Positions 15,523 through 60,870 of a DNA stretch of 64,000 bases are shown one piece after another. The notes under the pieces were generated by a model. That model was not told the origin of the DNA. It searched no databases and saw only the letters and a program-made list of their open reading frames with translations. The DNA comes from an uncultured Faecalibacterium sp. (GTDB lineage: Bacteria; Bacillota; Clostridia; Oscillospirales; Ruminococcaceae). Location: the NCBI GenBank assembly GCA_934512105.1, contig CAKSWQ010000005.1, forward strand, positions 8,141 through 72,140, read 5' to 3'. Made by a program: the position numbers and the translations under genes. Numbering within the stretch: the stretch's first letter is position 1; each line of letters begins with the position of its first letter.

Positions 15523-15861
15523 ATTGCAATTTATCCCCGTAAAACCCTCTCAGGCGCTGCGCGCCAGCTCTCCCGAAGGGAGAGCTTTTACAGCTGCCGT
15601 TACCCGGCGATAAGCTCCCCCTGAGAGGAAAGACTTCCCCCGCTCCGGGGGAAGATGTCGCGCAGCGACAAAAAGGGGAATCTGGCACGGCGTAAGCCGT
15701 GACTGAGAGGGTTCTCCCCGCAAGGGGACGGAAACGTTTTCAAGACTGTCGCCTTTGCCAGCTCGGCCACATTGCAATTTATCCCCGTAAGGGGACGGAA
15801 ACCCGTCAGAATCCATCTTACACACGATGAACGGCTCATTGCAATTTATCCCCGTAAGGGG
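15523..15861 (+). CRISPR. orphan mini-CRISPR array, first repeat split by a palindromic repeat
   Basis: A 32-base repeat beginning ATTGCAATTTATCCCCGTAA and ending GGGGACGGAAAC. The intact copy is 15771-15802. Copy 1 is split: its first 20 bases are 15523-15542 and its end is 15716-15735. Copy 3 (15838-15861) loses its last 8 bases, as terminal repeats do. The two spacers, 15736-15770 and 15803-15837, are both 35 bases and unrelated. The repeat has an internal CCCC..GGGG dyad. There are no cas genes in the window, so the array is orphan or a relic. Confidence 0.8.
15543..15713. repeat. CCCTCAGTC-family palindromic repeat inside a CRISPR repeat
   Basis: 171 bases with perfect 11-bp terminal inverted repeats AACCCTCTCAG / CTGAGAGGGTT. 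Subterminal hairpins GGCGC-TGC-GCGCC and CACGGC-GTAA-GCCGTG follow each end. An inner module (about 15632-15678, ACTTCCCCC..GGGGGAAG plus TGTCGCGCAGCGACA) is shared with 60789-60834. It is flanked by TCCCCGTAA and TCCCCGCAA, an apparent 9-bp target duplication. Confidence 0.8.
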
Positions 15862-15866
15862 CCAAA

Positions 15867-15918
15867 AAAGCACCTCTGCCACTGGCGTTTGCCAGCAGCG
15901 GAGGTGCTTTGCTTTTTC
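15867..15918 (+). terminator. terminator after the CRISPR array
   Basis: Stem AAAGCACCTC..GAGGTGCTTT with a T-rich tail directly after the last, degenerate CRISPR repeat. Confidence 0.7.
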
Positions 15919-15930
15919 TTATATTCTATT

Positions 15931-16062
15931 TTACAGGTTGGGAGCTGTGCCTGCCGGGATCGTCTTTGTGACAGGCAGCGCCTTGACGCCTTGCGGAACA
16001 TCCGGCTTCATGGGGCGGATCTCCTGCAGATAATCGGCCACATCCCGCAGGGTCTGCTGCAC
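15931..16062 (-). other. possible 43-residue ORF or gene remnant
   Basis: A minus-strand frame from GTG at 16062 to TAA at 15931, with AAGG about 9 bases upstream of the GTG. The product reads like real protein (QQTLRDVADYLQEIRPMKP, then PVTKTIPAGTAPNL) and uses codons typical of the neighbours, but I do not recognise it. It could be a small gene following the BASS transporter or the C-terminal stub of a lost gene. Confidence 0.3.
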
Positions 16063-16106
16063 AGGGAATGAACCTTGTGCAGCAGCCCCTTATGGATTGT
16101 ATAAGA

Positions 16107-17051
16107 TCAGTCCTTCTTCTCTGCGGTGCGGGCGAAGAAGTTGGCAAGGACGGCACCGGAAATGTTATGCCACACCGAGAACACAGCGCCGGGGATGGTT
16201 GCCAGCGGATACTGTGCAAAGTGAGCAGCGGCCAGCGAGGTGGCCAGACCGGAGTTCTGCATACCGACCTCGATAGAGATCGCGCGGCACTTGGTGGAAT
16301 CCAGTTTCAGCAGCTTGCCCACGCCAAAGCCGGTGAGGTAGCCCAGCAGGTTGTGCAGGATGACCACGGCAAGGATCAGCAGGCCGCTGGTCATGATCTT
16401 AGCAGAGTTTGCAGACACAACAGCGCAGATGATGAGCACGATGGCGGTGGTGGAGATCAGCGGCAGCACCCGGACAGCGTTCTGGGTGAAGGCGTGGAAG
16501 AAGTGGTTGACCACAAAGCCCAGTGCGATGGGAACCAGCACCACCTTGACGATGGACAGGAACATACTCATGGGGTTCACATCCACGCGCTGACCGGCAT
16601 ACAGCAGGGTGAGCAGCGGGGTGAGGAAGGGGGCCAGTACGGTGGAAACGGCAGTCATGCCGACGGACAGTGCAACGTCGCCCTTGGACAGATAGGTCAT
16701 CACGTTAGAGGAAGTGCCGCCGGGGCAGGTGCCCACAAGGATGACGCCGATGGCCAGCTCGGTGGGCAGGTGGAACACCTGCGTCAGCGCCCATGCAAGG
16801 AAGGGCATCAGGGTGAACTGTGCAATGCAGCCGATGATCACGTCCTTCGGGCGGCTGAACACCACCTTGAAGTCCTCCGGCTTCAGGGTAAGACCCATGC
16901 CGAACATGACGATGCCCAGCAGGGTGTTGACCCACGCGGTCTTTACTACGCTGAAGGTGGCGGGGAACAGCAGTGCCAGTGCCGCCACCACAATGACGAT
17001 GGCCGCCATGTACTTGCCCACAAAATCGCTTACTTTTTCCAATGTTTTCAT
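16107..17051 (-). CDS. bile acid:sodium symporter (BASS) family transporter, T-box regulated
   Basis: A 314-residue protein with nine or ten transmembrane helices. Family motifs are GMGLTLKPEDF near residue 51, GTCPGGTSSNVMTYLSKGD in the first core repeat and EVGMQNSGLATSLA in the second; these form the sodium sites of BASS proteins. Bacterial members carry pantothenate, keto acids or other organic anions as well as bile acids. The ATG at 17051 has AAAAAGGAG at 9 bases. A T-box leader lies upstream (17293-17585), so expression should rise when one aminoacyl-tRNA is uncharged; that points to an amino-acid-related substrate. Confidence 0.85.
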   Translation of the reverse strand: MKTLEKVSDFVGKYMAAIVIVVAALALLFPATFSVVKTAWVNTLLGIVMFGMGLTLKPEDFKVVFSRPKDVIIGCIAQFTLMPFLAWALTQVFHLPTELAIGVILVGTCPGGTSSNVMTYLSKGDVALSVGMTAVSTVLAPFLTPLLTLLYAGQRVDVNPMSMFLSIVKVVLVPIALGFVVNHFFHAFTQNAVRVLPLISTTAIVLIICAVVSANSAKIMTSGLLILAVVILHNLLGYLTGFGVGKLLKLDSTKCRAISIEVGMQNSGLATSLAAAHFAQYPLATIPGAVFSVWHNISGAVLANFFARTAEKKD

Positions 17052-17292
17052 GATGATACTCCTTTTTCCTTGGGTGTATCTGAAAAGTCGAAAATTTAGC
17101 CTATTTCTACAATCACAGCTGGATTTTGCGTGAATCAGCCTTGAAATCCACAAAGGATTCCTGCGGCTGTTTGCCTTAAATCCCGCTTGTGCTTGCGAAA
17201 TATTCGTCATTTTCTTTGTTTTCAGATACACCTTACACTTATTTTTGCGGATGCAAAGGCAATGAAACATCCGGAAAATGGCTTTCCCGCAA

Positions 17293-17585
17293 ACAAAAAC
17301 GCCTTTGCCCCTTACGGTTCGTAAGAGACAAAGGCGTATAAGCTCCTCTGCGGTACCACTCTTATTGCCGGTGCAAAGCCCGGCCCCTCAGTGCGCATCC
17401 AACAATGCGCGGCCCGTGATAACGGGGGCCTGCCGTTCCTGCTTACTGGGGCGGATCCACCGCCCATTCAGCCGGAAAGCTCGGAGAGGATCTTCCCGCG
17501 GACGCCCTGCACTGTCTTGCACCAGCCGACAGCTCTCTGCAGCATTCTTTCCGGGTACTCTTTCTCGTCATAGCCGAATATTTCA
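17293..17585 (-). promoter_or_regulatory. T-box riboswitch leader upstream of the BASS transporter
   Basis: Minus-strand RNA with the hallmarks of a tRNA-sensing T-box: a Stem I base pair set CCGGAAAG / CTTTCCGG, an AGAGAGC and GGCTGGTGCAAG region, the antiterminator bulge AGTGGTACCGC (complement of 17350-17360), and a terminator ACGCCTTTG..CAAAGGCGT with T run at 17293-17337. The specifier codon is not certain; codons in the segment before the Stem I closing strand include CTC (Leu) and TCC (Ser). The leader ends about 240 bases before the gene start. Confidence 0.85.
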
Positions 17586-17594
17586 CTGCCACGG

Positions 17595-17623
17595 AGTATA
17601 CTCCCCTCGGGGGCTGAAGTCAA
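17595..17623 (-). promoter_or_regulatory. promoter of the T-box leader
   Basis: Minus strand: -35 TTGACT (17618-17623) and -10 TATACT (17595-17600), spacing 17, directly upstream of Stem I. Confidence 0.75.
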
Positions 17624-17726
17624 GAGACGTGACCCCTCTGTTTTTTCATCTGGTTCACATCATGAGTGAAAACTGTTCAGCCAAGGATCGTCCGACCGGC
17701 TTTGCCGGGCGTGGGTCCTTTATAAA

Positions 17727-17762
17727 AAAGGCGAAGTGACCGCTGGCCACTTCACCTTTTGG
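17727..17762 (-). terminator. terminator of serC-serA
   Basis: Minus strand: stem GGTGAAGTGGCC / GGTCACTTCGCC followed by six T, 20 bases past the serA stop. Confidence 0.82.
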
Positions 17763-17782
17763 TGTCTTATGTATTTTTGCTG

Positions 17783-18943
17783 TTACAGGATGCGCACCCG
17801 GATGACGGCGGGGATGCTGCTCAGCTTCTCGCTCAGGCGGGCATCTACGGCACCGGTGGCATCCAGCATGGTGTAGGCCATGTTCTTTTTGCTCTTGTTC
17901 ACCATGTTTTCAATGTTCAGGCCCGCCTCGGTGGTCAGGGCGGTGATCTGGCTGATCATGCCCGGCTCGTTCTTGTGGATGATGCAGATGCGCTTGCCGC
18001 CGGCGCGGGGCTGGTGCACCTCCGGCAGGTTGACCGAGTGGGCAATGTTGCCGTTGCGCAGGTAATCGCTCAGTTCCTGCGCCGCCATGATGGCGCAGTT
18101 GTCCTCGGCTTCCGGGGTGGAAGCGCCAAGGTGCGGGGTGCACACGATGCCGGGACGGCCGAGAATGGCCTCGGAGGGGAAGTCGGTCATGTAGCCGGAC
18201 ACCTTGCCGTTGTCCATGGCCTCCAGCAGGGCGGCGGTGTTCACCAGCTCGCCGCGGGCGTAGTTCAGGATCTTGACGCCGTCCTTGCACAGGGCAAGGG
18301 TCTGGGCGTTGATGGTGTCCTTGGTGGTGGGCAGGTAGGGCACATGGATGGTGATGTAGTCGCACAGGGGCAGCATATCGTTCAGGTTTACGCAGTGGTG
18401 CACCTGACTGCTCAGGTTCCATGCGGCCTCAATGGAGATGTAGGGGTCGTAGCCGTAGACCTCCATGCCCAGCTCGATGGCGCAGTTTGCCACCCGGGAG
18501 CCGATGGCACCCAGACCGATGACGCCAAGGGTCTTGCCCTTGATCTCGTTGCCCACGAACTGCTTCTTGCCCTTTTCCACGCTCTTTGCCATGGCGGGAT
18601 CACCGGCCAGTCCCTGACACCACTGGGCGGCGGCGGCCACGTTGCGGCTGCCCGCGATGAGCATCCCGACGACCAGTTCGGCCACAGCGTTGGCGTTGGC
18701 ACCCGGGGTGTTGAACACCACGATGCCCTGCTCGCTGCAGCGCTCCAGCGGGATATTGTTCACACCCGCACCGGCGCGGGCGATGGCCAGCAGATTATCG
18801 TTGAAGGTAGTGTTCAAAAGGTCGGCGCTGCGCACCAGAATGCCGTCCGGGGCATCGGCATCCACCGAGACATCGAACTGGTTCTTGGGCAGCTTTGCCA
18901 GCCCCACCGGGCTGATGGCGTTGAGCGTTTTAATGGTGTACAT
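17783..18943 (-). CDS. serA: D-3-phosphoglycerate dehydrogenase
   Basis: First step of serine synthesis, NAD-dependent oxidation of 3-phosphoglycerate. The 386-residue protein has the catalytic-domain segment ARAGAGVNNIPLE, the NAD motif GVIGLGAIGSRV near residue 147, the catalytic Arg in NYARGELVN and His in TPHLGASTPEAE, and a C-terminal ACT domain (ICIIHKNEPGMISQITALTTEAGLNIENM) that usually senses serine. It is the short form without the extra allosteric domain. It starts 15 bases after serC with GAGGGG before the ATG, forming a serC-serA operon. Confidence 0.93.
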   Translation of the reverse strand: MYTIKTLNAISPVGLAKLPKNQFDVSVDADAPDGILVRSADLLNTTFNDNLLAIARAGAGVNNIPLERCSEQGIVVFNTPGANANAVAELVVGMLIAGSRNVAAAAQWCQGLAGDPAMAKSVEKGKKQFVGNEIKGKTLGVIGLGAIGSRVANCAIELGMEVYGYDPYISIEAAWNLSSQVHHCVNLNDMLPLCDYITIHVPYLPTTKDTINAQTLALCKDGVKILNYARGELVNTAALLEAMDNGKVSGYMTDFPSEAILGRPGIVCTPHLGASTPEAEDNCAIMAAQELSDYLRNGNIAHSVNLPEVHQPRAGGKRICIIHKNEPGMISQITALTTEAGLNIENMVNKSKKNMAYTMLDATGAVDARLSEKLSSIPAVIRVRIL

Positions 18944-18958
18944 ATCTGAAACCCCTCT

Positions 18959-20041
18959 TTATGCATTCTCTTTGCGGAACTTCTCCATGAAGTCCACCAG
19001 CTTGTCCACGCCCTCGGCAGGCATGGCGTTGTAGATGGAAGCGCGCATACCGCCTACCAGACGGTGGCCCTTCAGGTTCACAAAGCCCGCCTCGGTGGCC
19101 TCGGCGCAGAACTTTTTGTCCATGTCTGCGTTGGGGCTGGTAAAGGTGACGTTCATGGTGCTGCGGTAGCGGTGCTCCACCGGGTTCGTGAAGAACTCCT
19201 GCCCGTCCAGATAGTCATACAGCACCTTGGCCTTGGCTTCGTTGATCTTTTGCATATTGGCCAGACCGCCGATGTCGTTTTCCAGATACTTGAGCACCAG
19301 ACCGGTCATGTAGATGCACCAGCACGGCGGGGTGTTGTACATGCTGTCCTTCGCCAGCAGGGTGGTGTAGTTCATCATGGTGGGCACGTTGTCGGCGGCG
19401 TGACCCAGCAGGTCGTCCCGGATGATGGCAATGGCCATACCGGCGGGGGCTACGTTCTTCTGCACGCCAAAGTAGATGCAGCCGTACTTGCTCACGTCCA
19501 CCGGCTTGGAAAGGATCATGGAGCTCATATCCGCCACCAGCGGCACGCCCTCTACCTGCGGCAGCTCCACAAACTGGGTGCCGAAGATGGTATTGTTCTG
19601 GCAGATGTGGACGTAGCTGGCGTCCTTGTCGTAATCAATAGCGTTTACATCCGGGATATAAGTGAAGTTTTTATCCTTACTGGACGCTACGATCTTGGCC
19701 TCACCGAACTTGGCGGCTTCCTTGGCGGCCAGACCCGAGAAGTTGCCGGACACGATGTAGTCCGCCTTGCCGGTGGTCATAAAGTTCAGCGGCACCATGG
19801 CAAACTGCTGGGTAGCGCCGCCCTGAAAGAAGCCCACCTTGTAGTTATCCGGGATATTCATCACCCGGCGCAGGGAGGCCTCGGTGTCCTTGATGATGGC
19901 ATCGAACCACTTGCTGCGGTGGCTCATCTCCATCACGCTCTGACCGCTGTCGCCGTATTCCAGCAGCTCGGCCTGTGCCTGCCGCAGCACCTTTTCGGGC
20001 AGCATGCTGGGGCCTGCGCTGAAGTTATATACTCGTGCCAT
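18959..20041 (-). CDS. serC: phosphoserine aminotransferase
   Basis: Second step of serine synthesis, PLP-dependent transamination of 3-phosphohydroxypyruvate. The 360-residue protein begins MARVYNFSAGPSMLPE, the typical SerC start, has GGATQQFAM for phosphate/PLP binding, the ADMSSMI segment with the PLP Asp, and the Schiff-base Lys in YFGVQKNVAPAG. The start at 20041 has GGAGAGG before it; the longer open frame is not needed. No phosphoserine phosphatase gene is nearby. Confidence 0.94.
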   Translation of the reverse strand: MARVYNFSAGPSMLPEKVLRQAQAELLEYGDSGQSVMEMSHRSKWFDAIIKDTEASLRRVMNIPDNYKVGFFQGGATQQFAMVPLNFMTTGKADYIVSGNFSGLAAKEAAKFGEAKIVASSKDKNFTYIPDVNAIDYDKDASYVHICQNNTIFGTQFVELPQVEGVPLVADMSSMILSKPVDVSKYGCIYFGVQKNVAPAGMAIAIIRDDLLGHAADNVPTMMNYTTLLAKDSMYNTPPCWCIYMTGLVLKYLENDIGGLANMQKINEAKAKVLYDYLDGQEFFTNPVEHRYRSTMNVTFTSPNADMDKKFCAEATEAGFVNLKGHRLVGGMRASIYNAMPAEGVDKLVDFMEKFRKENA

Positions 20042-20123
20042 AATGAACCTCTCCTTTTCCTGTGATACACCTATCACGCAGCACCGCCTGTTTTGCGGTG
20101 CGTCTGTTGCTTTCCGTAGCCGT

Positions 20124-20153
20124 AGTATACCGGTTTTTCCATGCCGAAAACAA
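20124..20153 (-). promoter_or_regulatory. promoter of serC-serA
   Basis: Minus strand: -35 TTGTTT (20148-20153) and -10 TATACT (20124-20129), spacing 18, some 80 bases before serC. Confidence 0.6.
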
Positions 20154-20293
20154 GAGCATCTTTGCACAAAGATATGGCCCCTGTATCCCGGTTGATGGCA
20201 CAAAGCATACAAATGTACGCCGTGCAGGAACAAAATATAAGACAATTGTAAAAGATATGCACTATCCCTTGGTTTCATGCGGATTTTCCACCC

Positions 20294-20322
20294 TTGCATC
20301 TTTGGTGAAAATGCGGTATACT
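20294..20322 (+). promoter_or_regulatory. promoter reading into the BlaI-like gene
   Basis: -35 TTGCAT (20294-20299) and -10 TATACT (20317-20322), spacing 17. The palindromic repeat at 20352-20581 lies between this promoter and the gene, so the transcript would carry the repeat in its 5' leader. Confidence 0.6.
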
Positions 20323-20351
20323 GGGAATGCTGAGACAAATGTAAAAGAAAT

Positions 20352-20581
20352 AACTCCCTCAGGCAAAGCCGATAGGCTTTGCCAGCTCCCTCGGGGAGGG
20401 AGGCTCTGGCGGGTACCCCTTCCGTCTTGCCGCTTCGCGTCAAGCCACCTTCCCCAAGGGGACGGCTTTAGTGGTGGCGGGAAACTTCGCGGCATTGCCA
20501 TAAGGCGTCCCCTTGGGGGAGCTGGCTGCGAACGTAGTGAGCAGACTGAGGGGGTATTTCGGGAGCGCCTGAGAGGGCGTG
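20352..20581. repeat. composite palindromic repeat, CCCTCAGTC family
   Basis: Begins AACTCCCTCAGGC with hairpin GGCAAAGCC-GATA-GGCTTTGCC. It contains the inner module CCACCTTCCCCAAGGGGACGGC in reverse relative to other copies, then AGACTGAGGGGG, and a second end GAGCGCCTGAGAGGGC that is the exact complement of the start of the 60.5-kb copy. It looks like two elements joined or nested. Confidence 0.72.
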
Positions 20582-20613
20582 CCCACTAAAAAATATTTAC
20601 GGAGGTACAACAG

Positions 20614-21036
20614 ATGTACGGCTTACCGGATACCCTGCGGCCGCTTTCGGCGGCGGAAGAACAGGTGATGCTTGCCGTGTGGGCGTGCCCGGGCGCGGCG
20701 GTGCGGCGGGACATCAGCCAGAAGCTCAAAGCCACCGGCTGGGCGGCAGCCACGGTGCTGAATTTTCTCTACCGATTGGAGGAAAAAGGCTGGGTCAGGT
20801 CGGCAAAGCAGGGCAACTGCAATGTATATGTGCCGCTGGTCACCCGGCGGGCTTACGGCGTGTACTGTATGCGGCAGCGGCTGGACACCCTGTTTGACGG
20901 CGACCTTGCTGCCGCCGTCCATGCGCTGGTAAGCGAGAGCGGCTGCTCTCAGAGCGCCTTGGAACAGGCCATCCGGGTGCTGGAGGAGAAGCATCAGGAG
21001 ACCGAGGAGTACGACCTGTACGACCCCTACGGCTGA
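20614..21036 (+). CDS. BlaI/MecI/CopY family transcriptional repressor
   Basis: A 140-residue protein with the N-terminal winged helix of the penicillinase-repressor family (LSAAEEQVMLAVWACPGAAVRRDISQKL, then AATVLNFLYRLEEKGWVRSAKQGNCNVYVP) and a helical dimerisation tail. GGAGGT precedes the ATG. Most relatives work with a BlaR-type membrane sensor protease; none is encoded nearby, and the next gene is citrate synthase. The target is therefore unknown; citrate synthase or distant genes are possible. Confidence 0.82.
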   Translation: MYGLPDTLRPLSAAEEQVMLAVWACPGAAVRRDISQKLKATGWAAATVLNFLYRLEEKGWVRSAKQGNCNVYVPLVTRRAYGVYCMRQRLDTLFDGDLAAAVHALVSESGCSQSALEQAIRVLEEKHQETEEYDLYDPYG

Positions 21037-21066
21037 ATTGTTTTATTTTTGTTTACAAATGGTTGG

Positions 21067-21095
21067 TTGACACCGAAATATCCGTTCTGTAATAT
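21067..21095 (+). promoter_or_regulatory. promoter of citrate synthase
   Basis: Perfect -35 TTGACA (21067-21072), -10 TAATAT (21090-21095), spacing 17. Confidence 0.72.
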
Positions 21096-21154
21096 AAAAG
21101 CTATTGAAAAATGAGAAACTGATATGGACGAATAGGAAAGGAGCAGCCAGACAC

Positions 21155-22513: not shown

Positions 22514-22544
22514 AAGGAACTCCCCGCTGCACAGTAACGATTAT

Positions 22545-22593
22545 GAAAGAAAGACACCGGACAGCCTTGCAGGCCGCCGGTGTCTTTCTTTTT
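22545..22593. terminator. bidirectional terminator between convergent genes
   Basis: Stem GAAAGAAAGACACCGG / CCGGTGTCTTTCTTTTT with A and T flanks between citrate synthase and the minus-strand hydrolase gene. Confidence 0.85.
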
Positions 22594-22605
22594 ATAAAAA
22601 TAGTT

Positions 22606-25742: not shown

Positions 25743-25750
25743 AATTATCC

Positions 25751-32825: not shown

Positions 32826-33071
32826 TTACCCCCTCAGTCAAGCCCTGTCGGGCTTGACAGCTCCCCCAAGGGGACGCCTTTGCACTATGCCGGAAACCTT
32901 CCCGCCGCCACCAAAAGCCGTCCCCTTGGGGAAGGTGGCATCGCCGCAGGCGATGACGGAAGGGGTGACTTCGCAAGCAACGTTGCACTTTAGCCGCAAA
33001 CCTTCCCACCATGCCAAAGGCTCCCTCCCAGAGGGAGCTGGCAAAACCGATAGGTTTTGACTGAGGGAGTT
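32826..33071. repeat. palindromic repeat, CCCTCAGTC family, 246 bases
   Basis: Begins TTACCCCCTCAGTC and ends GACTGAGGGAGTT. The left subterminal hairpin is GTCAAGCCC-TGTC-GGGCTTGAC; the right is CAAAACC-GATA-GGTTTTG. An inner end CATCGCC-GCA-GGCGATG followed by GACGGAAGGGGT is shared with the 60.7-kb copy. The middle carries AAGCCGTCCCCTTGGGGAAG. Confidence 0.8.
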
Positions 33072-48985: not shown

Positions 48986-49122
48986 AACCCTCTCAGTCGC
49001 CTGACGGCGACAGCTCTCCCGAAGGGCGAGCTTTTTTGCAGGAGAAGGAAACGTTTCCCTTCAATGAGAAAGCTCCCCCACTCGGGGGAGCTGGCACGGC
49101 GCAAGCCGTGACTGAGAGGGTT
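48986..49122. repeat. palindromic repeat, CCCTCAGTC family, 137 bases
   Basis: The cleanest copy: 13-bp perfect ends AACCCTCTCAGTC / GACTGAGAGGGTT, left hairpin GTCGCC-TGAC-GGCGAC, right hairpin CACGGC-GCAA-GCCGTG, and inner AGCTCCCCCACTCGGGGGAGCT. It begins two bases after the GtrA stop. Confidence 0.85.
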
Positions 49123-49292: not shown

Positions 49293-49310
49293 AACAACGG
49301 AGGAACGAGC

Positions 49311-50082: not shown

Positions 50083-50192
50083 GCGCCCAAGCCTTGCCAG
50101 CAGGGCGCGGCAGGGTGTATAATACAATCAGGTATTGTATAAAACAGGGGCTGTCTGCCTTATGGGGCAAGGCGGGCAGAGGAGGAACTGCA

Positions 50193-51362: not shown

Positions 51363-51392
51363 AAGGAATGTCTAAAATAAGTGCGACTTATC

Positions 51393-51421
51393 TTGACAAT
51401 CTGACGCTGCAATGATAGAAT
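51393..51421 (+). promoter_or_regulatory. promoter of metK
   Basis: -35 TTGACA (51393-51398) and -10 TAGAAT (51416-51421), spacing 17, upstream of the riboswitch. Confidence 0.78.
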
Positions 51422-51446
51422 ATGTGGCGTACCAATTGAATACCGA

Positions 51447-51541
51447 CTTATCAAGAGCGGCTGAGGGGACAGGCCCTGTGAAGCCCGACAACCTGCGCGA
51501 GAGCGTAAGGTGCCAAATCCTGCGGGAAACCGGAAGATAAG
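51447..51541 (+). promoter_or_regulatory. SAM-I (S-box) riboswitch
   Basis: The aptamer closes with CTTATC / GATAAG and holds the conserved AAGAG..GGCTGAGGGGAC, GGCCCTGTGAAGCCCG, CAACC and AAGGTGCCAAATCCTGC blocks. It senses S-adenosylmethionine, the product of the downstream metK enzyme. Confidence 0.94.
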
Positions 51542-51545
51542 AGTG

Positions 51546-51585
51546 CAACGCTCAGAGCTTTCGGCTCTGGGCGCTTTTATTTTTC
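51546..51585 (+). terminator. expression-platform terminator of the SAM riboswitch
   Basis: AACGCTCAGAGC-TTTC-GGCTCTGGGCGCT followed by a T-rich run, 60 bases before metK. It would form when SAM is bound. Confidence 0.85.
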
Positions 51586-51643
51586 AGAACAAACTTGATG
51601 GAATGGTAAATACACGCAACTGCAACATTTTAGGAGGCAAAAA

Positions 51644-52798: not shown

Positions 52799-52833
52799 AA
52801 AGCGTCTTGCCCTGATAAAAGGTAAGTGAAGAG

Positions 52834-52866
52834 AGACCGCTGCACCCGACCGTGCAGCGGTCTTTT
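52834..52866 (+). terminator. terminator of metK
   Basis: Stem AGACCGCTGCAC / GTGCAGCGGTCT and a T run. The 270 bases that follow (to 53139) hold no gene and no clear promoter hexamers. Confidence 0.88.
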
Positions 52867-53139
52867 TGCGTCACAGGGGAAAGAAAAGGGTACGGCAAAA
52901 GTACTACTTTTCCTCAAAAATCAGAGGATAGTTGCGAAATGGTAAAGATTTGGTCGTGTTTTTGTAAGAAACTCACATTCTCTTGAAGGAAAAGGAAAAA
53001 CAGCTGTGCAAGGCGCAGAAAATCCACACATGAAACAAATTGATATGGAACAATCGACAAAATGTGATAAAATAAAACTAGATATGCGCACTTGTGTGCA
53101 TGGTACGGATGGTAAACAGCAATAAGGAGTTATGTGACT

Positions 53140-54282: not shown

Positions 54283-54295
54283 AAAGCTGTTCCAA

Positions 54296-54327
54296 AGCCC
54301 CTGCACCCTGCGTGCAGGGGCTTTTTT
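54296..54327 (+). terminator. terminator of prs
   Basis: Stem AGCCCCTGCAC / GTGCAGGGGCT and six T. Confidence 0.88.
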
Positions 54328-54334
54328 GTGTGGG

Positions 54335-54475
54335 ACACCCCCTCAGTCTTTGCTGCGCAAAGCCAGCTCCCCCAAGGGGACGCCTTTTGGCGCTGCCGCA
54401 AAGTTTCCCGCCGCCGCTAAAGCCGTCCCCTTGGGGAAGGTGGCTTGACGCGAAGCAGCAAGACGGAAGGGGTGC
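54335..54475. repeat. palindromic repeat, CCCTCAGTC family, about 140 bases
   Basis: Begins ACACCCCCTCAGTC with hairpin CTTTGC-TGC-GCAAAG, carries AGCTCCCCCAAGGGGACGCC and AAGCCGTCCCCTTGGGGAAG, and ends with the imperfect hairpin CTTGACGCGAAGCAGCAAG and GACGGAAGGGGTG. Confidence 0.75.
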
Positions 54476-54627
54476 AAGCCTGAGAAGGCGAACCCCGCCC
54501 TTTTTGCGTTTTTAAGCGTTGTCTGTTAAGTTTTTGAAAATTCGTGCCGGGGGCTTTGCAAATCCCGATGGGTTTATGCTATATTTAAGTTGAAATACTT
54601 TGCATTCTGACAGAAAGGAAAAACGCC

Positions 54628-55332
54628 ATGGAGCATTTTGTGGAGTTTGAAGATGTCTGTAAATATTACCAGACCGGCAGTGTGAAGATCGCTGCTGCCG
54701 ACCACCTGAATTTCTATGTGGACAAGGGCGAGTTCTGCATCATTGTGGGGCCATCCGGCGCGGGCAAGACCACCTTGCTGAACATTCTGGGCGGCATGGA
54801 CAACTGCGACGAGGGCAATGTCTGGCTGGACGGCCGCAACGTGAGCCGCTTTTCGGCCCGGGAGTTGACCACCTACCGCCGGTATGACGTGGGCTTTGTG
54901 TTCCAGTTCTACAACTTGGTACAGAACCTGACCGCGCTGGAAAACGTGGAGCTTGCCAGCGAGATCTGCCGCGACCCGCTGGACCCCGCCGAGACTTTAC
55001 GCAGCGTGGGGCTGGGCGAGCGGCTGAACAACTTTCCGGCGCAGCTTTCCGGCGGCGAGCAGCAGCGGGTGTCCATTGCCCGCGCACTGGCCAAAAACCC
55101 CAAGCTGCTGCTCTGCGACGAGCCCACCGGTGCGCTGGACTACCGCACCGGCAAGCAGGTGCTGGGTCTTTTGCAGGATACCTGCCGTAAGACCGGACGC
55201 ACCGTCATTGTTATTACCCATAACACGGCACTGACCGGTATGGCTGACCGCATCATTCAGGTGCGCAGCGGCCGCATCGTGTCCAATCAGGTCAACGAGC
55301 ACCCGGTGCCGGTGGAACAGATCGAGTGGTGA
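54628..55332 (+). CDS. ABC transporter ATP-binding protein (MacB/LolD type)
   Basis: A 234-residue ATPase: Walker [14 protein letters not shown]-loop [21 protein letters not shown] typical of the MacB/LolD group, signature [16 protein letters not shown], Walker [13 protein letters not shown] and switch ITHN. AGAAAGGAAAAACGCC precedes the ATG. It overlaps the permease gene start by seven bases. Confidence 0.94.
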
Positions 55333-58300
55333 GAACTGTGCAGAAAAGTTACCGCAAAAATATCCTGCGCGAGATGAAAAGCAGCATCAGCCGGGTGGTG
55401 TCCCTGTTTGGCATCGTGGCGCTGGGCGTGATGATGCTCACCGGCCTGATGTGCATTGCCCCCGATATGCGCACCGCTGCCCAGAAGTTCTATGTGCAGC
55501 AGAATGTGTTCGACCTGCGGGTGCTGTCCACCCTTGGTCTCAGTCAGAGCGATATCGACACCATTGCCGCTGTGGACGGGGTGGACGCCGTGCAGGCGGT
55601 GAAGTATCAGGATGTGGAAGGCCACTGGACAGGGGACGAGCAGACCACCGTGGCGCGGCTGTATCAGCTGCCCGCCGACCCGCAGGCCGATACGCCGGAG
55701 AACATGAACCGCCCGGTGCTGCTGTCTGGCCGGATGCCGGAAGCTGCCGGGGAGTGCGTGGTGCATGTGATGGGCCACGGCAGCCCGGTGGAGCTGGGCA
55801 CCCAATTGACCCTGCCGGAGGAGACCGAGGGGGTCAGCGGGCAGGTGTTCACGGTGGTGGGCACGGTGCAGGACCCGCTGCATTTTTCCACCGATTCCGA
55901 GAGCAGCACCGTGGGCGATGGCCAGCTGGACTGCATCCTGTTTGTGCCGGAGGGCACTTTGACCGCAGATTATTATACGGTGTGCTATATCAAAGCAGAA
56001 AACGCCGGACTGTATGATAATTATTCCGATGAATATCAGGCCGCAGTGGATGCTGTGGCCGAGAACCTCAAGGCCATCCAGAGCGTGCAGTGCACCGCCC
56101 GGCGGGAAGAACTGATGGATACCGCCAACGACAAACTGACCGAAGCGCGCGCGGAGTACGACAGCCAGAAGGCCGAGGCAGAGCGCCAGTTCGCCGAAGC
56201 CGAGGCGAAACTGACAGATGCGCAGCAGCAGCTGGACGCCGCCAAGGCACAGCTGGAAGCTGGCGAAAAGGAACTTGCTGCCCAGAAGGAGGCTTTGCCG
56301 GATACCATGCAGAGCGGCGCCGACCAGCTGGTGACCAGCGAGGAACAGGTGCTGGAATTTGAGGAACAGTTACAGCAGATTGAGCTGCTGGTCAACCTGA
56401 AAAAGGTGGCAGACCCCTTGCTGACCTACGCGGACACTGCTCTGCGCAACGCCGAAAAGGCGCTGGACGAGGCCGAGCCGGAGGACGAGGATTACATTGA
56501 ACTGCGGGATGCGCTGGCCAAAGCGCAGGCCGCTTACGACAACATCTATAACCAGCTGCAAGGCTATCAGCAGCAGCTGGACGCGGGCAAGCGGCAGATG
56601 TACCAGCAGGGGCTTATTTCCTCGCCCAGCCTCTCCAACGACCAGCTGGTGACCGAGGCCAAGGCCGCGCTGCGCAAGATAAAATTGCAGCTTTTGCAGG
56701 GGCAATTGCAGCTGACCACCGGTACCGCCAGCGCCTACACCCAGTTCGATGCTGCACAAAAGCAGCTGGAAGAGGGCTGGGAGGAATACAACGCCGGGCA
56801 GACCCAGTTGGAAGAATCCCGCACCGAATACGAGAGCCAGAAGGCCGAGGCTGAGCAGAAGCTGGCGGACGGCCTTGCCCAGCTGAACGACGCCGAGGAG
56901 CAGGTGAGCCAGATCAAAAAGGGCGAGTGGTATGTGCTGGACCGCACCTCCACCATGAGCTGCGTCACCTTTGCCCAGTACGCCGACCGCATGGACGCCA
57001 TTGCCCGGGTGTTCCCGGTGTTCTTCTTCCTTGTGGCGGCGCTGGTGGCTACCACCACCATGACCCGCATGGTGGACGAGAACCGCCTGCAAATGGGCAC
57101 CTTAAAGGCGCTGGGTTACTCCAATTTCAGCATCGCGGGCAAGTATTTGTTCTACGCGCTGCTTGCCACCATACTGGGCAGCATCGTCGGCATGGTGGTG
57201 GGCTTTGTGGTGTTCCCCATCATTATCTGGAACGCCTATCAGATGGTGTTCACCCTGCCCACCTTCACCCTACACTTCTACCCGGGCATGGCAGTTGCCA
57301 GCGTGGGCATCAGCGCCGCCGTCATCGGCTTTGCTACATGGTTTGCCTGCCGTTCCAGTCTGGCCGAAAAGACCGCAGCCTTGCTGCTGCCCCGGGCCCC
57401 GGTGGCGGGCAAGCGCATCCTGATGGAGCGCATCACCCCGCTGTGGCAGCGGATGTCCTTCTCCCAAAAGACCACCGCCCGCAACCTGTTCCGGTATAAA
57501 AAGCGGTTCTTCATGACCGTGCTGGGCGTGGCGGGCTGCACCGCGCTGCTGCTTATCGGCTTTGGCATACAGGATTCCCTGCTGCCCATCGTCACGAAGC
57601 AGGCCACGGAGCTGACCCACAACGATATGTCCATCACCCTCAGCGACCCCAAAGCCCTGACCATGGAGCAGGGGCTGGCAGACGCGCTGGACAGCAACAG
57701 CGCCGTACAAAACTGGAGCGCGGTGTATACCAAATCCACCACCATCTACAATGCCGAAGGCCAGAGCGCCAGCGTGAGCATCGTGGCAGCCGCCAAGGAC
57801 AGCGACCTGACCCGGTACGTTACCTTCCGCACCCGCAAGGGGCACAAGGCCATCAGCTTTGACAGCGGCAGCGCCATCCTGACCGAAAAGACCGCCGAGA
57901 ATCTGGGGCTGCACACCGGCGATACCTTCTGGGTGGAAAACGCCGAGGGTGTCCGGGTGGAGATGACCCTGACCGGCATCACCGAGAACTATATGTTCAC
58001 CCGGCTGTACCTCCCCCGCGCACAGCTGGAAAGCCTGCTGGGCACGGAGGATATCCCGTGGAACACGGTCTACGGTCAGACCACCTGCACCGATGCTGCC
58101 GGGTACAACGCCCTGCGCACCGACCTGCTGGAGTGCAACTACGTCAGCAGCATCAGCTTTACCGAGGACACCACCGAACTGTTCGATAACCTCATCGTCA
58201 GTCTGGGCTATGTGGTGGTGCTGATCATCATCTGCGCGGCGGCGCTGGCGGCTGTGGTGCTGTATAACCTGATCAGCGTCAACCTTGGGGAGCGCAAAAA

Positions 58301-58604
58301 GGAGCTGGCTACCATCAAGGTGCTGGGCTTCTACGATCAGGAGGTGTACCGCTACATCTTCCGTGAGATCGAGCTGCTGGCGCTCATCGGCTCCGGCGTG
58401 GGTCTGGCGCTGGGTGTGCCGCTGCACAAGTTCATCGTGCTGACCGTGGAGATGGATCAGCTCATGTTCATCCGCACCATCGCCCCTCGCAGCTACCTGC
58501 TGGCGGTGGCGCTGACCATGGTGTTTACCGTGGTGGTCTGCTTTGTCATGCGGCGGCACGTCCGGCATATCAGCATGGTGGAAAGCATGAAAGCCCCGGA
58601 GTAA
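55326..58604 (+). CDS. FtsX-like ABC transporter permease with long coiled coil
   Basis: A 1092-residue permease. After one N-terminal helix (SLFGIVALGVMMLTGLMCI) comes a large extracytoplasmic region whose middle (about 260-530) is a heptad-rich coiled coil (repeats such as AEAEAKLTDAQQQLDAAKAQLEAGEKEL cut by acidic linkers). Two FtsX domains with three helices each follow (about 560-680 and 960-1090), separated by a MacB-like periplasmic-type domain. The start is GTG at 55326 or 55329, coupled to the ATPase stop. Such pairs export lipids or peptides or regulate wall enzymes; the substrate is unknown. Confidence 0.9.
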   Translation: MVRTVQKSYRKNILREMKSSISRVVSLFGIVALGVMMLTGLMCIAPDMRTAAQKFYVQQNVFDLRVLSTLGLSQSDIDTIAAVDGVDAVQAVKYQDVEGHWTGDEQTTVARLYQLPADPQADTPENMNRPVLLSGRMPEAAGECVVHVMGHGSPVELGTQLTLPEETEGVSGQVFTVVGTVQDPLHFSTDSESSTVGDGQLDCILFVPEGTLTADYYTVCYIKAENAGLYDNYSDEYQAAVDAVAENLKAIQSVQCTARREELMDTANDKLTEARAEYDSQKAEAERQFAEAEAKLTDAQQQLDAAKAQLEAGEKELAAQKEALPDTMQSGADQLVTSEEQVLEFEEQLQQIELLVNLKKVADPLLTYADTALRNAEKALDEAEPEDEDYIELRDALAKAQAAYDNIYNQLQGYQQQLDAGKRQMYQQGLISSPSLSNDQLVTEAKAALRKIKLQLLQGQLQLTTGTASAYTQFDAAQKQLEEGWEEYNAGQTQLEESRTEYESQKAEAEQKLADGLAQLNDAEEQVSQIKKGEWYVLDRTSTMSCVTFAQYADRMDAIARVFPVFFFLVAALVATTTMTRMVDENRLQMGTLKALGYSNFSIAGKYLFYALLATILGSIVGMVVGFVVFPIIIWNAYQMVFTLPTFTLHFYPGMAVASVGISAAVIGFATWFACRSSLAEKTAALLLPRAPVAGKRILMERITPLWQRMSFSQKTTARNLFRYKKRFFMTVLGVAGCTALLLIGFGIQDSLLPIVTKQATELTHNDMSITLSDPKALTMEQGLADALDSNSAVQNWSAVYTKSTTIYNAEGQSASVSIVAAAKDSDLTRYVTFRTRKGHKAISFDSGSAILTEKTAENLGLHTGDTFWVENAEGVRVEMTLTGITENYMFTRLYLPRAQLESLLGTEDIPWNTVYGQTTCTDAAGYNALRTDLLECNYVSSISFTEDTTELFDNLIVSLGYVVVLIIICAAALAAVVLYNLISVNLGERKKELATIKVLGFYDQEVYRYIFREIELLALIGSGVGLALGVPLHKFIVLTVEMDQLMFIRTIAPRSYLLAVALTMVFTVVVCFVMRRHVRHISMVESMKAPE

Positions 58605-58742
58605 TGTTTACAAGTCGTTCATAAAATGAGCATAATTCCGTAGGATTTTTCGGGTATCATAAAATCACCGGGAGGGGGAGAGCCGCAAGCCCCCTCTCAG
58701 GGACATGATTCCTCCTATACCCCAAACCAAATACCGCAAAAG

Positions 58743-58786
58743 GCCGCGCCTCATCTGAACCAGCAGATGAGGCGCGGCTGTTTTTG
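58743..58786 (+). terminator. terminator of the ABC exporter operon
   Basis: Perfect 15-bp stem GCCGCGCCTCATCTG / CAGATGAGGCGCGGC followed by TGTTTTT, about 140 bases past the permease stop. Confidence 0.87.
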
Positions 58787-58820
58787 TAAAGGCTGCGATT
58801 TCTTTTCGATTGCACACAAA

Positions 58821-58871
58821 AGCACCCCCTGTGGTCTGTACGGGTAGACCGCAGGGGGTGCTTGGCTTTTT
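58821..58871. terminator. terminator of the purine permease gene
   Basis: Stem AGCACCCCCTGTGGTCT / AGACCGCAGGGGGTGCT with flanking A and T tracts, 15 bases from the minus-strand stop. Confidence 0.8.
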
Positions 58872-58885
58872 AGATGCGCAGGGAA

Positions 58886-60256
58886 TTAGAGGAACACATA
58901 CTTGAGGATGAACAGCACGGTGAGTACATACATCAGCGGGCTGATCTTCTTCTCCTTGGCCTTGCCGGTGACCACGTTGATGATGGTCCAGGAGATGATG
59001 CCAATGGCGATACCCTCGGAGATGCTGTAAGCGGTGGGCATAGCCAGAATGGTCAGGAAGGCGGGGATGCCCTCGCTGGGATCATTGAAGTCGATCTTGA
59101 CGGCAGAGCCCATCATGTAGAAGCCCACGATGATCAGAGCCGGAGCGGTAGCAAAGCTGGGGATGGTGAGGAACAGCGGGCTGAAGATGGTAGCCAGCAG
59201 GAACAGCACACCGGTGGTCATAGAGGTCAGACCGGTGCGGCCGCCCTCGGTAACGCCGGAGGCGCTCTCCACGAAGGTGGTGGTGGTGGAAGTACCCAGC
59301 ACAGCGCCCACGCAGGTGCCGATGGAGTCTGCCATCAGTGCGCCCTTGATGTGGGACAGACGGCCGTCCTCGTCCAGCATATCAGCCTTGGAGGCCACGC
59401 CGATCAGGGTGCCCAGCGTGTCGAACAGGTCCACGAACAGGAAGGAGAACATCACGGCGAAGAAGTTCAGCGGGCCGACACCAGAGAAGTCGGTCTTGAA
59501 CACCTGACCAAAGGTCTGGCCCAGTGCGGTGAAGTCGAAGCTGACAAAGGCGGTGGGGATCACGGAGTACATGCCGGCCTCCACATCGGGGACGTAGATG
59601 CCGGTCAGCTCGCACACGATGCCCAGCAGCCAGGTGATCAGGATGCCGTACAGGATGCCGCCCTTGACCTTTTTGACCAGCAGGATGGCGGTGATGACCA
59701 CGCCCAGCAGAGCAAGGATAGCGCCCACGCCCACGCTGTGGAAGGTTGCGCCCTTGAAGTGCTGGTAGGTGACCAGCGTGGAATCGCTGTTGACGATCAG
59801 CTTGGCGTTCTGCAGGCCGACAAAGGCCACGAACAGACCGATGCCCACGCTGACGGCGCTCTTCAAGGTCATGGGAATGGCGTTGAAGATGCCCTCGCGC
59901 ACATTGGTCAGGGACAGTGCGATGAAGATGACGCCCTCAACAAAGACAGCCATCAGAGCCAGCTGCCAGCTGTAACCCATGGTCAGCACGACCGTGTAGG
60001 CAAAGTAGGCGTTCAGGCCCATGCCGGGAGCCAATGCAAAGGGGTAGTTGGCCAGCACAGCCATCAGTGCGGTGGCAATAAAGGATGCCAGCGCGGTGGC
60101 GATCAGCACAGCCTTGGAATCCATGCCCGCTGCGGACAGGATGTTGGGGTTGACGGCAAGGATGTAAGCCATGGTCATGAAGGTGGTGATACCGGCCATG
60201 ATCTCGGTCTTTACATCGGTGTGGTTTTCTTTCAGGTGAAAGAACTTTTCTAACAT
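58886..60256 (-). CDS. NCS2 family purine permease (AzgA/PbuG type)
   Basis: A 456-residue transporter with about 13 helices. AzgA-type markers are TEIMAGITTFMTMAYILAVNP, LAPGMGLNAYFAYTVVL, FVDLFDTLGTLIGVA and GTSTTTTFVESASGVTEGGRTGL. These proteins import hypoxanthine, guanine or adenine with protons. AGGAGG is 6 bases before the ATG. The 140-base leader contains a CTCCGCCG..CGGCGGAG hairpin followed by TGTTTTATT, which could act as an attenuator, but no purine riboswitch core is visible. Confidence 0.9.
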   Translation of the reverse strand: MLEKFFHLKENHTDVKTEIMAGITTFMTMAYILAVNPNILSAAGMDSKAVLIATALASFIATALMAVLANYPFALAPGMGLNAYFAYTVVLTMGYSWQLALMAVFVEGVIFIALSLTNVREGIFNAIPMTLKSAVSVGIGLFVAFVGLQNAKLIVNSDSTLVTYQHFKGATFHSVGVGAILALLGVVITAILLVKKVKGGILYGILITWLLGIVCELTGIYVPDVEAGMYSVIPTAFVSFDFTALGQTFGQVFKTDFSGVGPLNFFAVMFSFLFVDLFDTLGTLIGVASKADMLDEDGRLSHIKGALMADSIGTCVGAVLGTSTTTTFVESASGVTEGGRTGLTSMTTGVLFLLATIFSPLFLTIPSFATAPALIIVGFYMMGSAVKIDFNDPSEGIPAFLTILAMPTAYSISEGIAIGIISWTIINVVTGKAKEKKISPLMYVLTVLFILKYVFL

Positions 60257-60264
60257 GAGAAACC

Positions 60265-60312
60265 TCCTGCTTCCAATAAAACACTCCGCCGGTTGCAGAC
60301 GGCGGAGAAAGA
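60265..60312 (-). promoter_or_regulatory. leader hairpin of the purine permease mRNA, possible attenuator
   Basis: Minus strand: CTCCGCCG-TCTGCAAC-CGGCGGAG followed by TGTTTTATT, ending about 20 bases before the ribosome-binding site. The structure suggests an attenuator, but no known ligand-binding core precedes it. Confidence 0.35.
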
Positions 60313-60485
60313 ACAGCTCCCATTTTATCAGCTGAAAACGTTCTTGTCCACATCAGAAACACATAAACTTCGCAATTTGTTCAAATTTTCTTAAATAAGT
60401 ATGACTTATCCACCAAAAAATCCGACGTTTTTTGGTAGTTTGGACGGAATGCAGGCATTTTGTGCAGAAAAAATGTCTGCGAAAA

Positions 60486-60870
60486 AGGCTCGCCCTCTCA
60501 GGCGCTCCCGCGCCAGATTCCCCCAAAGGGGGAGCCAAGCCGTAAAGCTTATCGCTAAAGTATTCTGTGTAATGGGGAAGTTTCTAACTCAAGCGCAAAG
60601 TTTGCGGGCGCGCCAGAGGCTCCCTCCCAGAGGGAGCTGGAAAAACCGTCAGGTTTTGACTGAGGGAGTTCAGGCAGTTACCCCCTCAGTCTGCTCACTG
60701 CGTTCGCAGCCAGCTCCCCCAAGGGGGCGCCTTTGCGTGGCTACCGCAGAGTTTCCCGCCACTACTAAAGCCGTCCCCTTGAGGGCTGACTTCCCCCGGC
60801 CGGGGGAAGATGTCGCGCAGCGACAAAAGGGGGAGTGTGGCATCGCCGCAGGCGATGACGGAAGGGGTTC
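60486..60870. repeat. cluster of palindromic repeats, CCCTCAGTC family
   Basis: At least two adjoining elements. The first runs from GCCCTCTCAGGCGCTC near 60489 to GACTGAGGGAGTT at 60658-60670, with right hairpin AAAACC-GTCA-GGTTTT. The second runs from GTTACCCCCTCAGTC at 60677 to GACGGAAGGGGTTC at 60870, with right hairpin CATCGCC-GCA-GGCGATG. The second contains the ACTTCCCCC..GGGGGAAG and TGTCGCGCAGCGACA module also found in the CRISPR-embedded copy. No gene is seen between 60257 and 61195. Confidence 0.78.

What the first reader, a model, noticed from the sequence alone, without database searches (positions are those of the whole stretch)
15543..60870. Modular palindromic repeat family with covarying subterminal hairpins
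At least six intergenic loci (15543, 20352, 32826, 48986, 54335, 60486) share ends CCCTCAGTC / GACTGAGGG and inner palindromic modules. Just inside the ends each copy has a hairpin whose stem sequence differs but stays paired: GGCGC/GCGCC, GGCAAAGCC/GGCTTTGCC, GTCAAGCCC/GGGCTTGAC, GTCGCC/GGCGAC, CTTTGC/GCAAAG on the left; CACGGC/GCCGTG, CATCGCC/GGCGATG, CAAAACC/GGTTTTG on the right. Conserved pairing with changing sequence suggests selection for, or regeneration of, the hairpin itself, as RNA structure or as a transposition or replication signal. Seeing the covariation is direct; the cause is inference.
Basis: partly seen in the sequence, partly recalled or inferred. Interest (0 to 1): 0.72.

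Follow-up and report, generated by a model that had tools for sequence, protein, structure and literature searches.

The report
Gut-bacterial repeats with interchangeable DNA hairpins
Short repeats scattered through Faecalibacterium and related gut bacteria carry a tiny hairpin at each end whose letters differ from copy to copy yet stay paired; the pattern fits single-stranded DNA shape better than RNA, and copies with the same body can carry different hairpins.

Summary
In about 2 Mb of sequence, 305 of 314 ends defined by flanking motif alone carry a subterminal hairpin, 162 different ones. Covariation exceeds all 500 shuffles in three fixed-length classes. Three further results narrow the cause. 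(1) Read from inside the element outward, at both ends, 255 of 305 loops are GNA or GNNA and 1 is the reverse type (ordinary hairpins: 61 and 66 of 671); such loops on G-C pairs are a known DNA mini-hairpin motif (PMC4686876). Wobble pairs are nearly absent. (2) The pyrimidine tracts on either side of the hairpin are mirror images, the inner one pairing with a purine tract: the layout of an intrastrand triplex, as in E. coli BoxC. (3) Hairpins and elements turn over far faster than flanks: 10 of 50 orthologous end pairs keep the hairpin; one orthologous half-element is identical but for its hairpin. One insertion shows a 9-bp duplication inside a CRISPR repeat; no transposase was found. Best reading: a MITE/REP-like family whose DNA mini-hairpin is conserved as shape and exchanged or regenerated in place. 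New variant of a known kind.

The parts
15543..15713 (.). full element (AACCCTCTCAG type), inserted in a CRISPR repeat; left end with hairpin GCGC-TGC-GCGC at 15543-15574, right hairpin CACGGC-GTAA-GCCGTG from 15686; a second module nested in its right half
15534..15542 (+). left copy of 9-bp target duplication, TCCCCGTAA
   Evidence: right copy differs by one base
15715..15723 (+). right copy of 9-bp target duplication, TCCCCGCAA (one base lies between it and the inverted repeat, as in L113)
   Evidence: the insertion at the same base in L113 has a perfect 9/9 duplication TTGCGGGGA
20352..20390 (+). left half-element, AACTCCCTCAG end with hairpin GGCAAAGCC-GATA-GGCTTTGCC
   Evidence: orthologue in L114 has GCAAAACC-TGAT-GGTTTTGC
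20415..20555 (.). full element of the ACCCC type next to and inside the previous one; ends 20415-20455 and 20515-20555
32828..32966 (.). full element; left end 32828-32867 (TCAAGCCC-TGTC-GGGCTTGA), right end 32928-32966 (CATCGCC-TGC-GGCGATG read outer to inner)
33033..33071 (-). end of a further copy, AACTCCCTCAG with CAAAACC-TATC-GGTTTTG
48986..49122 (.). full element; ends 48986-49020 (TCGCC-TGAC-GGCGA) and 49084-49122 (CACGGC-TTGC-GCCGTG); absent at the orthologous site in L033/L115 and L040
54337..54473 (.). full element just downstream of a terminator-like hairpin; ends 54337-54373 (CTTTGC-TGC-GCAAAG) and 54433-54473; absent in L040
60493..60670 (.). full element; left hairpin GGCGC-TCCC-GCGCC at 60501, right end 60632-60670 (AAAACC-TGAC-GGTTTT)
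60680..60868 (.). adjacent full element; left end 60680-60720, right hairpin CATCGCC-GCA-GGCGATG from 60841 ending in GACGGAAGGGGT, a nested module in between

Best explanation
This is a family of short, non-coding, MITE/REP-like interspersed repeats of Clostridia whose conserved feature is single-stranded DNA shape. Each end is built as: outer pyrimidine tract (Y1) - variable mini-hairpin (hp1) - inner pyrimidine tract (Y2) - short loop - purine tract (R). Y2 pairs with R; Y1 is the mirror of Y2, so the strand read from inside outward could fold as a purine-motif intrastrand triplex (Y, R, then a second R as third strand), with hp1 as the linker, capped by a very stable GNA/GNNA DNA loop. Two such ends in inverted order make an element of about 100-210 bp. 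Shown: the anatomy, the pairing, the loop rule and its polarity, the mirror rule, insertion polymorphism, rapid turnover of elements and hairpins at orthologous sites, and one orthologous half-element identical but for its hairpin. Inferred: that the fold forms in the cell; that it is selected as DNA; that elements spread by transposition with a 9-bp duplication by an unidentified enzyme; and that hairpins change by short-patch exchange with other copies and/or by template switching when DNA polymerase meets the fold, which copies one arm from the other and so keeps the pairing.
For: 305 of 314 flank-defined ends fold. Covariation in three classes. Loops inner-to-outer GNA/GNNA 255 of 305 and TNC/TNNC 1, against 61 and 66 of 671 ordinary hairpins; loop plus two innermost G-C pairs in 231 of 305 ends and 108 of 162 distinct hairpins, the motif described in PMC4686876 (passages seen). 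Few wobble pairs. Mirror: of 201 ends with an asymmetric Y2, Y1 is its mirror within one mismatch in 175 and a direct copy in 3; the bases flanking hp1 are A..G or C..C in 299 of 303, as expected if a purine tract ending GAGC or GAGG takes a third strand; an exact purine partner of Y2 (5 nt or more) was found in 250 of 305 ends (printed before the script stopped). Two copies with identical bodies and both hairpins different. Orthologue with flanks 94.7% identical, next 75 bp identical and hairpin ACC-TGC-GGT versus AAAGCC-TAC-GGCTTT. 9-bp duplication TTGCGGGGA in a CRISPR repeat.
Against: The mini-hairpin rule is weaker outside Faecalibacterium (19 of 37 ends in G040, 26 of 46 in G044). Overall 1817 of 1950 pairs are Watson-Crick; 113 of the 133 others are T-C or C-T, mostly at a fixed outer place. 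My hairpin caller maximises Watson-Crick pairs with up to 3 nt of slip, which inflates pairing, and the end search only admits listed pyrimidine-rich motifs, which limits tract variety. The mirror rule rests on few tract types (22 pairs of 7-mers, 4 exact mirrors, one of them symmetric), and 18 ends of the CCTCATCCG type miss it by two. A general target duplication is not seen: 5 of 84 full elements against 2.55 by shuffling, maximum 8. No helper: Y1 transposases do not track the repeats, and of 10 ORFs tested between widely spaced matching ends none is a transposase by Pfam, 5 matching nothing. The hairpin-only change is one clear orthologous case, and that locus also differs by a nested module in its other half. 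No in-vivo data.
Confidence: 0.55

Rival explanations
1. The hairpins are RNA elements (terminators, mRNA-stabilising stem-loops or small RNAs) in transcripts of neighbouring genes, and covary because the RNA fold is selected.
For: Many copies lie between a stop codon or terminator and the next ribosome-binding site (seen in the junctions printed; not counted). Covariation itself fits RNA. REPs elsewhere are thought to be transcribed and to act as RNA (PMC3733652, abstract).
Against: Loop polarity is mirrored between the two ends, so a transcript carries the favoured loop at one end only; GNA triloops (153 of 184) and non-GNRA tetraloops predominate; G-T 0.4% of pairs against 6% in tRNA stems. 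No Rfam family over the elements at gathering score in the whole window, nor at E<=1 in 15400-20700 apart from weak CRISPR-repeat matches beside the 15543 copy (the other loci were not searched at that level).
Confidence: 0.15
2. Hairpin diversity is purely shuffling: a fixed pool of old hairpins is moved among copies by short-tract gene conversion, with no new hairpins made and no selection on the fold.
For: 35 of 166 hairpin sequences occur in two or more genomes; in six genome samples 137 of 284 ends carry a hairpin that recurs in the same sample; some core hairpins occur in both end types (10 of 162) and under two or more outer tracts (15 of 162). An element is inverted between G001 and G063 at one locus.
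Against: 131 of 166 hairpin sequences were seen in one genome only and 147 are singletons within their genome sample (samples cover only part of each genome). Neutral shuffling does not explain the loop rule, its polarity or the pairing over 162 distinct hairpins.
Confidence: 0.2
3. Ordinary decayed MITEs of a DDE insertion sequence: the subterminal hairpin is only a by-product of palindromic end sequences, and turnover reflects repeated insertion at hot spots.
For: Inverted ends, empty sites, one 9-bp duplication, and three different elements at one site in three genomes with an empty site in a fourth (L112:9358).
Against: A transposase that reads sequence would hardly tolerate 162 different subterminal hairpins between conserved motifs; no helper found; no general duplication.
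Confidence: 0.1

Closest known systems
BoxC / PIT / TM-ECO intrastrand triplex repeats of E. coli and other bacteria (PMC4666352; abstract, section 3 part 1, sections 15, 16, 19 and some passages read)
   Same: Pyrimidine tract, purine tract and a second purine tract on one strand (class II order); occur as inverted pairs too; loci unusually unstable between strains; no known function.
   Different: TM-ECO is CCCTCNCCC-N3-6-GGGNGAGGG-N3-GGGNGAGGG, and that search took loops of 1-6 nt; here the second loop is a variable hairpin of 12-31 nt in the folded set, and tracts of about 7 nt differ between subtypes, so that search would not have found these. TM-ECO was reported from proteobacteria. The triplex itself was not tested here.
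CGTC-tagged REPs (PMC3733652; abstract, outline and passages seen)
   Same: Tag next to a hairpin (CGTC in 75 of 305 ends, AGTC in 174), CCA tail (198 of 305), inverted dimers, no dedicated transposase.
   Different: The paper's table gives stems of 8-9 bp and loops of 4-5 nt; here 31 of 305 stems are 8-9 bp and most loops are 3-4 nt. Faecalibacterium, Clostridi*, Ruminococc* and Firmicutes do not occur in its main text. Mirror pyrimidine tracts are not mentioned in what I saw.
REPINs / GTAG REPs moved by RAYT (PMC3116915, PMC8266576: search listing and start of abstract only)
   Same: Two inverted hairpin units with a short spacer.
   Different: No GTAG tag at these ends; no Y1 transposase in genomes rich in the repeats (G006, G016, G021, G040) and one or more in several without a match (for example G012, G033, G045).
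Integron attC sites and IS200/IS605 ends (recalled, no call)
   Same: Sequence-variable or structure-defined single-stranded hairpins recognised by shape.
   Different: No integrase or Y1 association shown; a 9-bp duplication at one insertion speaks against those chemistries for that copy.

Membership tests
BoxC/TM intrastrand triplex repeats | Three tracts (Y, R, third strand) on one DNA strand with mirror sequence | tested here: met
   175 of 201 asymmetric ends within one mismatch, 185 of 303 ends exact over 7 nt; CCTCATCCG type (18 ends) not met; purine partner found in 250 of 305
BoxC/TM intrastrand triplex repeats | TM-ECO consensus with 9-nt tracts and loops of 3-6 and 3 nt | tested here: not met
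   tracts about 7 nt, second loop a hairpin of 12-31 nt
BoxC/TM intrastrand triplex repeats | Forms a triplex in vitro | not testable with these tools
   needs CD, NMR or footprinting
CGTC REP | CGTC (or TGTC, CCTC) tag and CCA tail flanking the stem | tested here: inconclusive
   both in 69 of 305 ends; AGTC tag in 174, CCA tail in 198
CGTC REP | Stem 8-9 bp, loop 4-5 nt | tested here: not met
   31 of 305 stems 8-9 bp; 184 triloops, 119 tetraloops, 2 of five nt
REPIN / RAYT system | Y1 (RAYT) transposase in the genome | tested here: not met
   G006, G016, G021, G040 have 20-30 pattern matches and no Y1_Tnp
MITE of a DDE transposon | Terminal inverted repeats | tested here: met
MITE of a DDE transposon | Target-site duplication | tested here: inconclusive
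   perfect 9 bp in L113, 8 of 9 in the window copy at the same base; 5 of 84 elements overall, shuffled mean 2.55
MITE of a DDE transposon | Autonomous relative with the same ends | tested here: inconclusive
   14 widely spaced matching end pairs in part of each genome; longest ORF of 11 intervals, 10 tested: 5 non-transposase families, 5 without a Pfam match
Structured RNA family (Rfam) | Match to a curated model | tested here: not met
   whole window, gathering scores; 15400-20700, E<=1

The most novel reading that the evidence does not exclude
A hairpin-switching DNA element: ends fold on one strand as a purine triplex closed by a hyperstable GNA/GNNA mini-hairpin; forks stall there, and template switching rewrites both hairpin arms together, so a copy gains a new, still paired hairpin while its body is untouched. 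The hairpin is then a self-renewing structure kept by replication chemistry plus selection on shape; I know of no such case in an interspersed bacterial repeat family, and this one is spread across much of Clostridia.
Probability: 0.2. Interest if true: 0.82.

Novelty: new variant of a known kind. Interest (0 to 1): 0.64.

Why it matters
If right, it offers hundreds of natural, closely related copies in which DNA secondary structure, not sequence, is what persists: a direct testing ground for whether single-stranded DNA folds form and are selected in bacterial cells, for how palindromic arms stay matched (selection, exchange or template switching), and for why intergenic spacers of common human gut commensals differ so much between strains. 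Copies with identical bodies and different hairpins make the question of mechanism directly testable by strain series.

Tried and rejected
Guide idea (stem matches the insertion site): 35 of 273 stems occur in their own outer flank against a shuffled mean of 38.5; rejected. Y1/RAYT helper: no correlation. Autonomous relative: none recognised between matching distant ends, but 5 of the 10 ORFs tested have no Pfam match, so this is open. General target duplication: not found. A conserved extension beyond the inverted repeat: only AGCNNN before CTCGCCC stood out in the column consensus; longer shared flanks looked, by eye, like a neighbouring terminator repeat. Scripts that failed: BLAST gap costs not accepted, redone; index error after its first two printed lines, redone. 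Papers: nine searches of the held open-access library listed no title or abstract start that describes this family in Faecalibacterium or Oscillospirales; the RepRanger survey of REPs (PMC12306157) does not name Faecalibacterium, Oscillospir*, Ruminococc* or Clostridi* in its main text. Subscription journals are not in that library, so it may have been described there.
Full report
WHAT IS THERE. The window is from Faecalibacterium: the 55326-58604 protein has relatives of 96-97% identity in three F. prausnitzii/Faecalibacterium sp. genomes, and the nearest whole genome held, G001, shares 31% of its sampled 31-mers; a G001 contig has the length of one of strain APC923/51-1, whose genome gives the same match list. 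The pattern CCCTCAG-N14-40-CAGCTCCC has 33 matches in G001 and none for the reversed control; the slightly looser form occurs in 30 of 61 genomes (G001 and 60 relatives), with 36 in G001, 66 in G044 and 30 in G040 (reversed controls 0, 1, 0). In a sample of 148 genomes of the class a still looser pattern matches in 88, but it has background; 15 of the 148 have at least 10 matches with reversed controls of at most 10% of that, in 8 families (my count; the hairpins of these were not checked one by one). So the family is spread, patchily, over Clostridia.

ANATOMY. I fetched stretches of six genomes and, with the window and three named loci, searched for ends by flanking motif alone, leaving the hairpin region free: 314 ends, of which 305 fold as a hairpin, with 162 distinct stem-loop sequences. 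Stems run from 4 to 12 bp. An end reads, from outside in: pyrimidine tract Y1, then CAG or CCG, the hairpin, then CAGCT or CCACCT with pyrimidine tract Y2, a short loop and a purine tract complementary to Y2; that partner was found by exact match of at least 5 nt in 250 of 305 ends, most often after 3 nt (156, printed before that script stopped on an error). Two ends in inverted order, 84 such pairs in my Faecalibacterium set, make the full element; half-elements alone are frequent in the listings of G040 and G044 (by eye). Within one subfamily of one genome bodies are nearly constant while hairpins differ; two copies have identical bodies and different hairpins at both ends.

COVARIATION. On three alignments of distinct equal-length hairpins (26, 33 and 18 sequences) 98.6, 92.9 and 97.6% of cells are standard pairs; covariation scores 0.282, 0.499 and 0.401 were not reached in 500 shuffles, and sliding the partner by 1-3 columns lowers them to 0.214 or less. 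Some pairs take all four Watson-Crick types. Not every measure stands out: the number of further pair types was reached in 30, 302 and 407 of 500 shuffles, and the number of pairs with a double change in 1, 22 and 140.

DNA OR RNA. Read from inside the element outward, the loop is GNA in 153 of 184 triloops and GNNA in 102 of 119 tetraloops; the closing pair is C-G in 292 of 305, and 1 of 305 loops is of the reverse type. In 671 ordinary hairpins of these genomes (stem at least 7, more than 250 bp from any end) the two polarities are equal, 61 and 66. Loop plus two innermost G-C pairs holds in 231 of 305 ends, and variation rises from the loop outward: the first pair is C-G in 150 of 162 distinct hairpins, the fifth is spread over all four types. 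PMC4686876 (passages) describes GNA or GNNA loops on at least two G-C pairs as extraordinarily stable DNA mini-hairpins. Because the polarity is inside-to-outside at both ends, a transcript would have the favoured loop at one end only. GNRA, the stable RNA form (recalled), is 33 of 102. G-T and A-C mismatches are 7 and 7 of 1950 pairs, against 19 G-U and 2 A-C of 300 pairs in 25 tRNAs; my caller penalises G-T, so part of this deficit is built in, but in the three alignments, where G-U counts as a pair, 3 of 532 cells are G-U. Of the 133 non-Watson-Crick pairs 113 are T-C or C-T, mostly a fixed outer position.

MIRROR TRACTS. Y1 tracks Y2 as a mirror: CCCTCTC with CTCTCCC, CCCCCTC with CTCCCCC, CCCCTTC with CTTCCCC, CTCCCTC with itself. 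Of 201 ends with an asymmetric Y2, 175 have Y1 as its mirror within one mismatch and 3 as a direct copy; the identity at the variable positions is 0.76 against 0.66 for shuffles within genomes (0 of 500 reach it). The bases next to the hairpin are A..G (211) or C..C (88) in 299 of 303. This is the layout of an intrastrand triplex with the hairpin as linker. PMC4666352 (abstract, section 3 part 1, sections 15, 16 and 19, and passages) describes such repeats (BoxC, TM-ECO) as abundant, without assigned function and tied to instability of their loci; its search took loops of 1-6 nt, so this arrangement lay outside it. The number of independent tract types is small, the end search admits only listed pyrimidine-rich motifs, and one type (CCTCATCCG, 18 ends) does not fit.

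TURNOVER. Between related genomes, elements are present in one and absent in another at about twenty intergenic sites (counted by eye), the window's 48986 and 54335 included. Outside the inverted repeats 4-26 bp often differ as well, so most junctions are not clean. I compared ends whose outer 300 bp is conserved (at least 85% over 120 bp, reaching within 40 bp) and that carry an end in both genomes: 58 pairs, 10 with the same hairpin, 2 one base apart, 46 different. After dropping 8 pairs from overlapping loci, 50 remain: 38 with a different body and a different hairpin, 4 with a different body and the same hairpin, 6 with the same body and hairpin, 2 with the same body and a changed hairpin; pairs, not loci, are counted, and some share a locus. 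Ordinary hairpins, treated alike except that absence also counts, are identical in 263, at least 80% alike in 170 and different or absent in 151 of 584. In the clearest case (L128 against L140) the outer motif and the next 75 bp are identical and the hairpin changes from ACC-TGC-GGT to AAAGCC-TAC-GGCTTT, a matched change of length in both arms; the same locus also differs by a nested module in its far half. At L095/L144 the element is inverted between two genomes with flanks 98-99% identical and one hairpin replaced. At L112:9358 three genomes carry three different elements within a few bases of one site and a fourth is empty.

MOBILITY. In L113 the element splits a CRISPR repeat, next to intact repeats, with a perfect 9-bp duplication TTGCGGGGA; the window's 15543 copy sits at the same base with 8 of 9 matching. 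This is the best evidence for transposition. It is not general: 5 of 84 elements show such a duplication against 2.55 expected by shuffling. No helper was found: Y1 transposases are absent from several rich genomes, and of 10 ORFs tested between widely spaced matching ends 5 belong to non-transposase families and 5 match nothing in Pfam.

CHROMOSOMAL PLACE. With dnaA as origin, matches fall 24/5/0 over the thirds from origin to terminus in G062 and 9/0/1 in G064 for the first pattern, 36/22/10 in G064 and 28/15/10 in G006 for the second (all four P<0.01, also after clustering; G006's length is rounded). G021, counted by hand and not tested, is 14/6/5. Cause unknown.

CONCLUSION. The repeat family, its covarying hairpins and the DNA-type loop rule are well supported. 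The triplex fold, transposition in general and the route by which hairpins change are inferences. It resembles BoxC triplex repeats in tract layout and CGTC REPs in hairpin tag and tail, but fails a defining feature of each, so I file it as a new variant of this kind of repeat, not as a member of either.

Noticed in passing
window 15520-15866; L113:15101-15800: Remnant of a CRISPR array (repeat ATTGCAATTTATCCCCGTAAGGGGACGGAAAC) interrupted by the 15543 element; at the corresponding place L113 still has several intact repeats.
   Followed up: partly
G040 loci L073 and L074 (reverse strand, downstream of the ends at 10,886 and 2,325): Arrays of the form AGTGATATT-[short hairpin]-AGTGATATT with a different GCTTCGC-type stem in each unit: a second repeat with constant spacers and changing, paired stems.
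   Followed up: no
window 15640-15690, 60790-60835; L128 near 3225-3300: A nested module, CCCCC-TTTTGTC-[hairpin]-GACATCTTCCCCC, sits inside the stem next to hp1 in several copies, as if half-elements insert at one internal spot.
   Followed up: partly
L097:698-792 and L105:2443-2537 (G001): A different 93-bp insertion with long inverted ends, present in G001 and absent at those sites in the compared G062/G063 loci: another MITE-like element.
   Followed up: no
L098 near 17,160-17,250, L109 near 13,150-13,240: A repeated terminator-like hairpin (AAAAAGCATCTGCAAC...GTTGCAGATGCTTTTT) that several elements adjoin.
   Followed up: no
window 58605-58818: A segment of about 210 bp present in the window and L033 and absent in L040; not of this family.
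   Followed up: no
window 17321-17580 (-), 51445-51543 (+), 15081-15153 (+): T-box leader, SAM riboswitch and a tRNA gene by Rfam.
   Followed up: no
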